Positions 2,798-6,718 of a stretch of 64,000 nucleotides of DNA are shown one piece after another. The notes below the pieces were generated by a model, which saw only the letters and a list, made by a program, of their open reading frames with translations, was not told the origin of the DNA and searched no databases. The stretch is from Arthrobacter wenxiniae (lineage in GTDB: Bacteria > Actinomycetota > Actinomycetes > Actinomycetales > Micrococcaceae), in NCBI RefSeq assembly GCF_013376105.1, contig NZ_JAAMFM010000006.1, forward strand, positions 62,001 through 126,000. The letters are read 5' to 3'. The position numbers and the translations under genes were made by a program. How positions within the stretch are numbered: position 1 is the first letter of the stretch; each line of letters begins with the position of its first letter.

Positions 2798-4932
2798 AGG
2801 CGTCCAAGGACATGCCGGCAGCCTGGGAAGGCCTTGGCTACCATGAGCTGAACGCCATGCTCAACCTGTACAACTCCGAGGGCAAGATCCAGTTCGACGC
2901 CGACCGCGCCGCTGCCCGCCAGTACTTCCTGCAGCACGTCAACAACAACACGGTGTTCTTCCATGACCTGGAGGAAAAGCTCGACTACCTGGTCAAGAAC
3001 GACTACTACGAGCGCGAAACACTTGACCAGTACACGATGAACTTCATTCGCGAACTCTACAACCACGCGTACAAGAAGAAGTTCCGCTTCGAGACGTTCC
3101 TCGGCGCATTCAAGTTCTACACGTCGTACACGCTGAAGACCTTTGACGGCAACCGCTTCCTGGAGCGCTACGAGGACCGTGTGTGCATGGTTGCCCTGCA
3201 CCTGGCCCGCGGCGACGAGGCGCTGGCCACCAAGATGGTGGACGAGATCATCGAGGGACGCTTCCAGCCGGCCACGCCAACGTTCCTGAATGCCGGCAAG
3301 AAGCAGCGCGGCGAGCTGGTCTCCTGCTTCCTGCTCCGCATCGAGGACAACATGGAGTCCATTGGCCGCTCCATCAACTCCGCCCTGCAGCTGTCCAAGC
3401 GCGGCGGCGGCGTGGCGTTCGCGCTGACCAACATCCGCGAGGTGGGTGCGCCCATCAAGCAGATCGAGAACCAGTCCTCCGGCGTCATCCCCGTCATGAA
3501 GCTCCTGGAGGACAGCTTCTCCTACGCCAACCAGCTCGGGGCCCGCCAGGGCGCCGGCGCCGTCTACCTGCACGCCCACCACCCCGACATCAACCGCTTC
3601 CTGGACACCAAGCGCGAGAACGCCGATGAAAAGGTACGCATCAAGACCCTGTCGCTGGGTGTCGTCGTTCCGGACATCACCTTTGAGCTGGCCAAGCGCG
3701 ACGAGGACATGTACCTCTTCTCCCCGTACGACGTCGAAAGGGTCTACGGCGTGCCGTTCTCCGACATCTCGGTCACCGAGAAGTATTACGAGATGGTGGA
3801 CGACGCCCGCATCAAGAAGACCAAGATCAAGGCACGCGAGTTCTTCCAGACCCTGGCCGAGATCCAGTTCGAGTCCGGCTACCCGTACATCATGTTTGAG
3901 GACACCGTAAACCGGGCCAACCCGATCGACGGCAAGATCATCATGAGCAACCTGTGCTCGGAAATTCTGCAGGTGTCCGCGCCAACCAGCTACAACGACG
4001 ATCTTTCCTACGCGGACACCGGCAAGGACATCTCCTGCAACCTTGGCTCGCTGAACATTGCCAAGGCCATGGATTCCCCGGACTTCGGCAGCACCATCGA
4101 GACCTCCATCCGCACGCTGACCGCGGTGTCGGACATGTCCAACATCACCAGCGTGCCGTCCATCGCCAAAGGCAACGACCAGTCGCACGCCATTGGCCTG
4201 GGCCAGATGAACCTGCACGGCTACCTGGCCCGCGAGCGGGTCCACTACGGTTCCGATAAGGGCCTGGACTTCACGAACATCTACTTCTACACGGTGGTGT
4301 ACCACTGTATCCGGGCGTCGAACCTGATCGCCATGGAGACCGGTTCCACGTTCGCCGGCTTTGAGAAGTCCAAGTACGCCAGCGGCGAGTTCTTCGACAA
4401 GTACACGGATCAGGAATGGGTTCCCCAGACCGCCAGGGTCGCCGAGCTGTTTGAGGGCATCCACATCCCCACGCAGGATGACTGGCGCGAGCTGAAGGCC
4501 TCGGTCATGGAGCACGGCATCTACAACCAGAACCTGCAGGCCGTCCCGCCCACGGGCTCCATCAGCTACATCAACAACTCCACGTCCTCCATCCACCCGG
4601 TGGCGTCGAAGATCGAGATCCGCAAGGAAGGCAAGCTGGGCCGCGTGTACTACCCGGCCCCGTACCTGACCAACGACAACCTGGAGTACTACCAGGACGC
4701 GTACGAGATCGGCTTTGAAAAGATCATCGACACCTACGCGGCCGCCACGCAGCACGTGGACCAGGGCCTGTCGCTGACGCTGTTCTTCAAGGACACCGCC
4801 ACCACGCGCGACATCAACAAGGCCCAGATCTATGCCTGGAAGAAGGGCATCAAGACCATCTACTACATCCGTCTCCGCCAGCTCGCGCTGGAAGGGACCG
4901 AGGTGGAAAATTGTGTTTCCTGTGCGCTATGA
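2794..4932 (+). CDS. nrdE: class Ib ribonucleotide reductase large subunit NrdE
   Basis: The catalytic alpha subunit, reducing NDPs to dNDPs. It spans about 712 residues from the GTG at 2794, a normal family length. Visible signatures are [20 protein letters not shown] (the first active-site cysteine of the redox pair), MSNLCSEI (the thiyl-radical cysteine), ISCNLGSLN, and [15 protein letters not shown]. The C-terminus ENCVSCAL supplies the mobile CxxC pair re-reduced by NrdH. GTG 2794 makes a 4-nt overlap with the nrdI stop. A TTG at 2761 in the same frame, with a GGAAG just before it, is a possible alternative, as is ATG 2812. The gene is intact and uninterrupted: the endonuclease gene begins 17 bp after its stop. 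Confidence 0.95.
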
Positions 4933-4949
4933 CGGAGTAATGCGTTGAA

Positions 4950-5735
4950 ATGACTGAAACGACGGCGGCAACGGGCGGCTTGGTCTATGGCATTCGCCTT
5001 CGGGCGGATTTTGAGTACCGATATGTCGGTATCACGACCAAGACGGCCAGCCGACGGTTCCATCAGCATCTTCGCGTAGCGGCAGCGGGACGCAAGACGC
5101 CGTTCTACGACTGGCTCCGTAAATTTGATCCGTCGGACGTCACCGTGGACGAGCTGGACTGCGTCGAGGGGCTGCAGGAGCTCGGGCAAGCTGAGATCGA
5201 CTGGATCAGTTATCTGCGGCGGGAAGGGGACAGGCTCCTGAACCTCTCCGAGGGCGGGCTGGGCCCGACCGGTGTCGTGTGGACGGATGCGATGCGTGAA
5301 GCGGCGCGGATCCGGTCCACTGGGCGCAAGATAGTCAGGGAGTGTGGGCCAGGGGCACCCTTCTTCGGCAAGCACCATAGCGAGGAGCAGAAGGAAAAGT
5401 GGTCCCGGGAACGCAAGGGGACCTATGTGGGTCCAGAGAATCCTAACTTTGGCAAGTTTGGGGAGGAGCACCCAGGCTTTGGCCATAAGATGTCGGACGA
5501 ATCTCGAAAGCTGTTGTCGGAAGCGAGGTCGGGGCCGCTCAATCCAAACTTCGGAAAGACTGCAAGTGCGGAAACCAGGGCAAAACGATCCGCTGCCATG
5601 AAAGGGATACCGCGGCCAGCTAGCCAGCGGAACGCCCACACCAGGCACCACACGAACAAGAACGTCATTAAGATTGACTGCAAGTACTGCATTGAAGATG
5701 CAGCGGCGCGGAACCTTAGAGAAGAAAGCGAATAA
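4950..5735 (+). CDS. free-standing GIY-YIG homing endonuclease with NUMOD3 repeats
   Basis: A 261-residue protein located between nrdE and nrdF on the same strand. Residues 11-103 fit a GIY-YIG nuclease: VYGI (Tyr13), YRYVGIT (Tyr23/Tyr25), SRRFHQH (candidate catalytic Arg35/36), QAEIDWI (candidate metal-binding Glu82), and the closing LNLSEGG. Residues 137-219 hold three NUMOD3-type DNA-binding repeats, each beginning P(N/F)FGK or PGFG and followed by a S-E-(E/S)-(K/R) helix (137-157, 165-195, 198-219). This architecture is that of mobile intron or free-standing homing endonucleases such as I-TevI relatives. Its codons and base composition are visibly less GC-rich than nrdE and nrdF. No intron is needed: both neighbours are complete. 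GGAG at 4934-4937 lies 12 nt upstream of the ATG. The function as a mobile element is inferred. Confidence 0.88.
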
Positions 5736-5740
5736 ATTCG

Positions 5741-6718
5741 ATGACACCGGAGAAGCTGAAGTTGGCGAGCCACGTGACGGCCATCAACTGGAACCGCATC
5801 GAGGACGAGAAGGACGTGGAAGTCTGGAACCGCCTCGTGAACAACTTCTGGCTGCCGGAAAAGGTGCCGCTGTCCAACGACATCCAGTCGTGGGCCACGC
5901 TGTCCGCGGAGGAGCAGCTGCTGACCATGCGCGTCTTCACGGGCCTGACCCTGCTGGACACCCTGCAGGGCACGGTGGGCGCCGTCTCGCTGATCCCGGA
6001 CGCGATCACGCCGCACGAGGAGGCCGTCTACACGAACATTGCGTTCATGGAGTCGGTGCACGCCAAGAGCTACTCGTCGATCTTCTCCACCCTGTGCTCC
6101 ACGAAGGAAATCGACGAGGCCTTCCGCTGGTCGGTGGAAAACGTGAACCTGCAGAAGAAGGCCCAGATCATCGAGGGCTACTACTACGGCGACGACCCGC
6201 TCAAGCGCAAGATCGCCTCCACGCTGCTGGAGTCATTCCTGTTCTACTCGGGCTTCTACCTGCCCATGTACTGGTCCTCGCGGGCCAAGCTGACAAACAC
6301 GGCAGACCTGATCCGCCTCATCATCCGCGACGAGGCCGTCCACGGCTACTACATCGGCTACAAGTACCAGAAGGGGCTCGAAGGGCTGTCCGAGGCGCGG
6401 CGCCAGGAGCTCAAGGACTACACCTTTGAGTTGCTGTTCGAGCTGTACGAGAACGAGGTCCAGTACACGCACGACCTCTATGACTCCGTCGGCCTGGCCG
6501 AGGACGTCAAGAAGTTCCTGCACTACAACGCCAACAAGGCCCTGATGAACCTCGGCTACGAGGCCATGTTCCCGGCCGCCGTGACCGACGTGAACCCTGC
6601 CATCCTCTCCGCCCTGTCCCCAAACGCCGACGAGAACCACGACTTCTTCTCCGGTTCCGGGTCCTCGTACGTCATCGGCAAGGCCGTCAACACCGAAGAC
6701 GACGACTGGGACTTCTAG
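5741..6718 (+). CDS. nrdF: class Ib ribonucleotide reductase small subunit NrdF
   Basis: A 325-residue R2F subunit carrying the metal-radical cofactor needed by NrdE. It begins [20 protein letters not shown], the usual NrdF opening. Conserved metal ligands appear in the [32 protein letters not shown] and [14 protein letters not shown] segments. The C-terminal tail [18 protein letters not shown] and the acidic DDDWDF end match the peptide that docks into NrdE. The ATG at 5741 is only 5 bp after the endonuclease stop, and its purine-rich ribosome-binding region (AGAGAAGAAAG) lies inside the end of the endonuclease gene, so nrdF translation now depends on that gene's 3' end. Confidence 0.96.

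What the first reader, a model, noticed from the sequence alone, without database searches (positions are those of the whole stretch)
4930..5745. Homing endonuclease lodged between nrdE and nrdF of a chromosomal ribonucleotide reductase operon
A complete GIY-YIG nuclease with three NUMOD3-like DNA-binding repeats sits precisely between two essential, uninterrupted genes on the same strand, 17 bp after nrdE and 5 bp before nrdF. Phage nrd operons carry free-standing homing endonucleases (T4-like mobE between nrdA and nrdB). A bacterial class Ib operon carrying one is, to my knowledge, unusual. Motif residues look intact and the gene is less GC-rich than its neighbours, suggesting recent arrival. 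It probably spreads by cutting endonuclease-free nrdE-nrdF alleles.
Basis: partly seen in the sequence, partly recalled or inferred. Interest (0 to 1): 0.8.

Follow-up and report, generated by a model that had tools for sequence, protein, structure and literature searches.

The report
Homing nuclease gene between nrdE and nrdF
A selfish DNA-cutting gene of a kind best known from viruses sits in the gap between two genes for making DNA building blocks in a soil bacterium, and relatives show that this gap has been filled, emptied and damaged many times, in bacteria and in some of their phages.

Summary
Window 4950-5735 is an intact 261-codon GIY-YIG/NUMOD3 gene, 17 bp after nrdE and 5 bp before nrdF, in the only class I/II RNR operon found in this genome. 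It belongs to a family tied to this junction. In Micrococcaceae 26 of 395 genomes carry it (2 of 23 in the genus), 26 of 26 between nrdE and nrdF; so do 7 of 7 copies found in other families of the order. Arthrobacter phage Talia1610 has a distant homologue at the same junction; its near-twins Racecar and Mimi have none. Signs of a homing life cycle: at least 17 presence/absence changes on the nrdEF tree, conflict between HEG and host trees, unusually divergent flanks in carriers (0 of 2000 permutations as large), broken copies, 'scars'. Against easy transfer: between genera HEG dS is never below nrdEF dS, and carriers of different genera share no common flank haplotype. Best reading: a free-standing homing endonuclease of bacterial chromosomes; cleavage was not testable. 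'Recent arrival' from GC is not supported. New variant of a known kind (phage mobE-type RNR endonucleases).

The parts
1752..2195 (+). ORF with glutaredoxin domain (nrdH-like); the true start is probably downstream
   Evidence: PF00462, 53.6 bits
2315..2797 (+). nrdI
   Evidence: PF07972, 153.4 bits
2761..4932 (+). nrdE, class Ib RNR large subunit, uninterrupted; ends ...[10 protein letters not shown], stop TGA
4906..4932 (+). last 24 coding nt of nrdE plus stop: the tract that is unusually divergent between carriers and non-carriers; encodes the C-terminal Cys pair
4933..4949 (+). 17-bp gap; the hairpin found here in most HEG-minus rows examined (60 of 80) is absent
4950..5735 (+). free-standing GIY-YIG homing endonuclease gene, 261 aa
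4983..5129 (+). GIY-YIG catalytic domain as far as Pfam matches it (residues 12-60); E82 lies at 5193-5195
5346..5606 (+). NUMOD3-type DNA-binding repeats (residues 133-219 by my reading; best Pfam stretch 178-212)
5637..5690 (+). conserved H-x3-H-x9-C-x2-C motif (H230, H234, C244, C247); zinc binding is inference
5736..5740 (+). 5-bp gap; in 15 of 26 family copies the HEG stop instead lies inside the ATGA of the nrdF start
5741..6718 (+). nrdF, class Ib RNR small subunit, uninterrupted

Best explanation
It is a free-standing GIY-YIG homing endonuclease that lives in one fixed chromosomal slot, the nrdE-nrdF junction. It is probably transcribed with the operon and translated by coupling to its neighbours (inferred from spacing). 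The enzyme cuts HEG-free nrdE-nrdF junctions (inferred); repair from a HEG-bearing allele copies the gene in with short flanks (inferred from flank divergence); the insert takes the place of the intergenic hairpin in hairpin-bearing genera and supplies the region upstream of nrdF (seen in the aligned junctions); copies later decay and are lost, leaving scars (seen). Spread between species needs incoming DNA; phages that carry their own nrdE-HEG-nrdF operon are a plausible but unproven vehicle.
For: Fixed site: 26 of 26 strong Micrococcaceae copies and 7 of 7 found in other families of the order. Empty sites: 21 of 23 in the genus. Patchy: at least 17 changes on a 106-row nrdEF tree. Tree conflict: the two g28 HEGs are not one clade (p-AU 0.0058) although g28 nrdEF is (100/100); L034+L044 p-AU 0.029, g10 0.039. 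Flanks: in 17 carrier/non-carrier pairs the last 60 nt of nrdE differ by 16.5% against 8.8% in 56 control pairs, the first 60 nt of nrdF after codon 3 by 12.5% against 5.0%, the rest of both genes about alike; with all 26 carriers, 0 of 2000 within-genus permutations reach either value. An Asn codon before the Cys pair and a TGA stop go with the HEG on 13 independent pairs (6.8 against 0.2 and 6.7 against 0.0, median p 0.016 each). Decay: L038 stop codon in the GIY motif, L048 4-residue deletion there, L051 frameshift; scars in L129, L130, L131. Phage twins: Talia1610 has a HEG, Racecar and Mimi do not; against Racecar, nrdE has 9 differences before -129 and 31 in the last 130 nt. Purifying selection.
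Against: No cleavage or homing was shown. HEG dS is below nrdEF dS in 0 of 247 between-genus pairs (undefined dS counted as not lower; pair number; nrdEF codon bias lowers its dS). Carriers of different genera do not share one flank haplotype: HEG+/HEG+ distance 0.196 against 0.185 for HEG-/HEG- at the nrdE end, 0.209 against 0.214 at the nrdF start, so the flank signal may be local recoding rather than imported tracts. The change count cannot tell gain from loss, and presence is clustered: 17 is below all 200 shuffles (minimum 19). Asn and TGA were chosen after seeing the counts; 17 pairs share partners (L098 in six). One AU test (g10 without L039, L042) gives p 0.083. GIY-YIG is under Pfam's cut-off.
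Confidence: 0.83

Rival explanations
1. Old, vertically inherited gene that was lost many times; mobile once, now mainly decaying.
For: The count of at least 17 changes does not tell gain from loss and presence is clustered; scars and broken copies show losses; HEG dS is not below nrdEF dS in any between-genus pair.
Against: The HEG tree rejects the host grouping of g28, p-AU 0.0058; purifying selection and a kept GIY motif in 24 of 26 copies call for a function; loss alone does not explain diverged flanks.
Confidence: 0.15
2. Domesticated regulator: the protein or its coding sequence tunes nrdE/nrdF expression (it replaces the intergenic hairpin and couples translation).
For: A perfect stem of 9 bp or more in 60 of 80 HEG-minus intervals; 6 of 26 HEG-plus intervals have one, none of the best stems printed is the ACGACGGCGGG type; stop/start overlap in 15 of 26; purifying selection.
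Against: Most relatives do without it, copies break and vanish; nuclease residues are conserved, which a mere regulator would not need.
Confidence: 0.07
3. Anti-phage use: the chromosomal nuclease cuts the nrdE-nrdF junction of incoming phages that carry class Ib RNR without the HEG.
For: Arthrobacter phages Racecar, Mimi and Atuin have HEG-free nrdE-nrdF junctions; weak PADLOC 'HEase' match, E 7.8e-7; a HEG-like nuclease used by a phage against a satellite, Odn, is in print (PMC8263062, passages).
Against: The gene is fixed to a nrd slot, not seen in a defence setting; phage and host NrdE are about 65% identical; no test of cleavage.
Confidence: 0.05
4. Remnant of a group I intron.
For: TIGR01453 group I intron endonuclease profile, 39 bits, under its cut-off.
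Against: nrdE and nrdF are intact and the gene lies between a stop and a start codon; no Rfam match in the window at gathering scores.
Confidence: 0.01

Closest known systems
MobE of T4-like phages, free-standing HNH endonuclease between nrdA and nrdB (PMC2988022, passages; PMC3653736, passages)
   Same: Free-standing endonuclease gene at the junction of the RNR large and small subunit genes; start/stop overlap suggesting translational coupling.
   Different: MobE is HNH, cuts nrdB, class Ia, phage genomes; here GIY-YIG + NUMOD3, class Ib nrdE/nrdF, chromosomes of one bacterial order plus some phages; here cleavage is not shown.
Seg family of phage T4 (free-standing GIY-YIG; PMC2988022 and PMC1564403, passages)
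   Same: Intron-free GIY-YIG genes in intergenic slots.
   Different: Other sites, phage T4; several Seg enzymes are listed as active, this one is untested.
Free-standing GIY-YIG ORFs in Bacteria, mentioned in general terms in 2006 (PMC1564403, passages)
   Same: Intron-free GIY-YIG genes in bacterial genomes are therefore not new as such.
   Different: The passages name no nrd site, Arthrobacter or homing cycle.
I-TevI (PDB 1i3j, DNA-binding domain)
   Same: Profile match, E 0.0045; GIY-YIG module plus DNA-binding beads.
   Different: I-TevI is intron-encoded in td; this gene is free-standing with several NUMOD3 repeats and a C-terminal H/C motif.
Gene 111 of Arthrobacter phage Talia1610 (PQ559666)
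   Same: Same junction nrdE-HEG-nrdF, 35% identity.
   Different: Phage operon; overlaps both neighbours as annotated; long branch in the HEG tree.

Membership tests
GIY-YIG nuclease superfamily | GIY...YIG, central Arg, C-terminal Glu (PMC1564403, passages) | tested here: met
   Y13 G14, Y25 G27, R36, E82 invariant in 17 rows; Pfam E 0.0031 but 18.2 bits, under cut-off 22.6
GIY-YIG nuclease superfamily | GIY-YIG fold | not tested
Free-standing homing endonuclease genes | Not inside an intron or intein; host genes intact | tested here: met
   no Rfam match in the window
Free-standing homing endonuclease genes | Same site occupied or empty among relatives | tested here: met
   2 of 23 in the genus, 26 of 395 in the family; junctions
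Free-standing homing endonuclease genes | Horizontal spread (HEG tree differs from host tree) | tested here: met
   g28 p-AU 0.0058; but HEG dS never below nrdEF dS between genera
Free-standing homing endonuclease genes | Altered flanks (co-conversion) | tested here: inconclusive
   flanks diverge locally and in phage nrdE, but no shared imported haplotype across genera
Free-standing homing endonuclease genes | Site-specific cleavage of the empty allele | not testable with these tools
   needs an assay
MobE family | HNH nuclease | tested here: not met
   GIY-YIG/NUMOD3 instead
Group I intron endonuclease | Encoded in a group I intron | tested here: not met
   intact genes, no Rfam match; TIGR01453 under cut-off
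Anti-phage defence protein | Member of a listed defence system | tested here: inconclusive
   only the generic HEase profile of PADLOC, E 7.8e-7; neighbours are nrd genes

The most novel reading that the evidence does not exclude
One endonuclease lineage circulates between bacterial chromosomes and their large RNR-carrying phages at the same nrdE-nrdF junction: phages act as vectors of homing into chromosomes, the resident nuclease in turn excludes HEG-free phage alleles, and the recoded nrdE end (Asn codon, TGA stop) is an immunity mark selected in both.
Probability: 0.12. Interest if true: 0.82.

Novelty: new variant of a known kind. Interest (0 to 1): 0.62.

Why it matters
Free-standing homing endonucleases are mostly studied in phages, and a review (PMC3984707, passages; the sentence is cut in what I saw) says there is little evidence that bacterial introns move horizontally. 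Here a chromosomal, intron-free homing gene with a fixed site in a probably essential operon shows full, empty, broken and scar alleles within one bacterial order, plus full and empty twins among Arthrobacter phages. The homing cycle, target-site immunity and phage-to-chromosome transfer become directly testable in harmless soil bacteria.

Tried and rejected
Recent arrival from low GC: rejected, nrdI has the same GC3. Group I intron remnant: no Rfam match, genes intact. Plasmid carriage: 8 plasmid records match, none over 80% of the query, all under 60% identity. A shared flank haplotype imported across genera: not seen. Ser codon TCN as an immunity mark: not significant on independent pairs (median p 0.22). 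Parallel flank changes in phage and bacteria: 7 of 9 Talia/Racecar differences go the bacterial HEG+ way, too few to claim. The nrdEF trees were misaligned for some rows (branches up to 4.8); they were repeated with codon alignment and only those are used. The HEG tree with phages has long phage branches and unsettled bootstraps; no origin is claimed from it. The inserts found in the same slot of six HEG-minus genomes gave no Rfam match, and the small ORF of one gave no NCBIfam match.

Rows dropped before counts: the weak hit G151 (29%, 22 bits) is not among the 26; second nrdE copies L029-L032, duplicates L006, L027, L058, L059 and the short L148 are not in the 106 rows. For L051 only the first HEG piece was used; 17 of 26 carriers had a non-carrier nearer than 0.08; controls were 56 of 80 non-carriers with a nearest non-carrier at 0.02-0.08.
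Full report
What is there. Pfam gives NUMOD3 at 59.3 bits and GIY-YIG at 18.2 bits, the latter under its cut-off; PHROGs, NCBIfam (under cut-off) and PADLOC give homing or intron endonuclease profiles. The profile of 17 relatives matches the DNA-binding domain of I-TevI. The GIY, YIG, Arg, His and Glu positions are invariant in those 17 rows, and a C-terminal H-x3-H-x9-C-x2-C motif is conserved; that it binds zinc is inference. 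nrdE and nrdF are complete. The genome gives one NrdE match, and the class II model NrdJ finds only that same nrdE, below its cut-off; class III was not searched. The operon is therefore probably essential (inference).

A family with one address. In the genus 2 of 23 genomes carry it; in the family 27 of 395 match, 26 of them at 62% identity or more and one weakly. All 26 lie between nrdE and nrdF. Of 396 genomes sampled from the order 12 match at E 1e-15 or better, 7 of them outside the family, and all 7 lie between nrdE and nrdF. Of 396 sampled from the phylum only the window's own matches. The named relative is Arthrobacter sp. 35W (L059, 83%). Viral contigs gave 3 loci and 7: L174, L175 and L176 have it between nrdE and nrdF, L177 follows nrdE and its contig ends near the end of the HEG match, and the other six show no nrdE or nrdF match in the stretches fetched (L157 included). 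L176 lies in a 158,613-base viral contig with phage-type neighbours; L174 and L175 are short contigs with host-like RNR genes and may be bacterial; L175's copy is broken.

Empty sites. HEG-minus relatives have a short interval, 107-162 bp in the genus, usually with a hairpin (ACGACGGCGGG...CCCGCCGTCGT). A perfect stem of 9 bp or more is present in 60 of 80 HEG-minus intervals; 6 of 26 HEG-plus intervals have some stem of that length, none of the best stems printed being of that type. On 13 independent pairs hairpin absence goes with the HEG 6.0 to 0.0, median p 0.031. So in hairpin-bearing genera the HEG takes the place of the interval; in g7 and g32 the HEG-minus interval is only 34-49 bp and has no such hairpin. 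In 15 of 26 copies the HEG stop lies in the ATGA of the nrdF start (my reading); in the window it ends 5 bp before. The first codons of the Micrococcaceae HEGs use ACG for Thr in 75 of 84 cases against 118 of 343 later in the gene (Fisher 1.3e-20). This may be a relic of the hairpin's left arm or a plain triplet repeat; I do not decide.

Signs of a homing cycle. On a tree of 106 nrdEF rows presence needs at least 17 changes; 200 shuffles give a mean of 23.3 and a minimum of 19, so presence is both patchy and clustered. The HEG protein tree conflicts with the host tree: p-AU 0.0058 for g28, 0.029 for L034+L044, 0.039 for g10, 0.083 for g10 without two rows. Comparing carriers with their nearest non-carrier (17 of 26 pairs closer than 0.08), the last 60 nt of nrdE differ by 16.5% and the first 60 nt of nrdF after codon 3 by 12.5%; 56 control pairs show 8.8% and 5.0%, with the rest of both genes about alike. 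With all 26 carriers, 0 of 2000 within-genus permutations are as large on either side. The excess is confined to about the last 24 nt of nrdE and the first 36 nt of nrdF after codon 3. Carriers have Asn before the Cys pair in 18 of 26 rows, non-carriers in 10 of 80 (Fisher 8e-8); on 13 independent pairs it goes with the HEG 6.8 to 0.2, and TGA stops 6.7 to 0.0, median p 0.016 each; both traits were picked after seeing the counts. Three copies are broken: L038 (stop in the GIY motif), L048 (4-residue deletion there), L051 (frameshift). Three related g31 genomes keep about 100 bp of HEG 3' end in an otherwise empty slot (L129-L131). Selection on the family is purifying, median dN/dS 0.11 in the 86 of 325 pairs with dS under 1.5; the same crude count gives 0.117 for nrdE+nrdF, whose dS is low.

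Phages. 107 of 50,697 phage records match the protein, 8 over at least 80% of it, the best at 35%. I looked at five contexts: Talia1610 carries nrdH-nrdI-nrdE-HEG-nrdF; in GodonK the gene directly precedes nrdF but follows DNA polymerase; in GMA2 it precedes a DNA polymerase, in Sixama it follows a capsid-type gene, in Entf1 it splits the terminase. So 1 of 5 is the nrdE-nrdF junction and 1 more is beside nrdF. Racecar, Mimi and Atuin have Talia's operon without the HEG; NrdE of Racecar and Mimi is 99.4% identical to Talia's. Talia's nrdE differs from Racecar's at 9 sites before -129 and at 31 sites in the last 130 nt; from Mimi's at 10 and 31. The nrdF side is not as clean: 86 differences of 951 with Racecar, dense again in its second half.

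Against the reading. Between genera HEG dS is below nrdEF dS in 0 of 247 pairs (undefined values counted as not lower), and carriers of different genera do not share one flank haplotype. So transfers are not very recent, or flanks changed by local recoding. Nothing here shows cleavage.

Literature. Nine searches were aimed at earlier reports: 19 of 19 papers listed; 2 of 2; 15 of 40; 3 of 3; 15 of 16; 2 of 2; 12 of 12; 12 of 267; 40 of 50. No listed paper, by title and start of abstract, describes a free-standing endonuclease in a bacterial chromosomal nrdE-nrdF junction; papers not listed or not held may. Passages were read in PMC2988022, PMC10448857, PMC3653736, PMC3984707, PMC3943268, PMC1564403 and PMC8263062; none in full. 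They show that RNR genes are common homes of phage endonucleases (mobE; 33% of T5orf172 HEG neighbourhoods surveyed) and that free-standing GIY-YIG ORFs in Bacteria were noted by 2006.

Verdict. A real, functional-looking free-standing homing endonuclease of bacterial chromosomes, with natural evidence for gain or transfer, decay and loss at one site; a new variant of a known kind.

Noticed in passing
L092, L102, L104, L112, L145, L146 (nrdE-nrdF interval): Six HEG-minus genomes of genus g10 have a 572-658 bp nrdE-nrdF interval with other contents; five (not L092) hold a tiny ORF near MAxGSYRSAKTGRYVTPKYGKSHPSTTVKESK. No Rfam match; the L145 ORF has no NCBIfam match.
   Followed up: partly
L051 (genome G076): A frameshifted HEG copy whose first part and the whole of NrdF fall in one open frame of about 590 codons.
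   Followed up: no
L151:3995-5640: Gordonia phage GodonK: a GIY-YIG gene overlaps the start of an nrdF 81.5% identical to the window's NrdF; the gene upstream is a DNA polymerase, not nrdE.
   Followed up: partly
L161:6039-8991: Corynebacterium phage Darwin is annotated with an HNH endonuclease right after nrdE and an intein in nrdF: the same region used by another nuclease family.
   Followed up: no
L029, L030, L031, L032: Four genomes of the genus have a second, about 70% identical nrdE with an nrdF after it and no HEG.
   Followed up: no
L176:7220-7654: An HNH endonuclease gene lies a few hundred bases after nrdF in the 158-kb viral contig.
   Followed up: no
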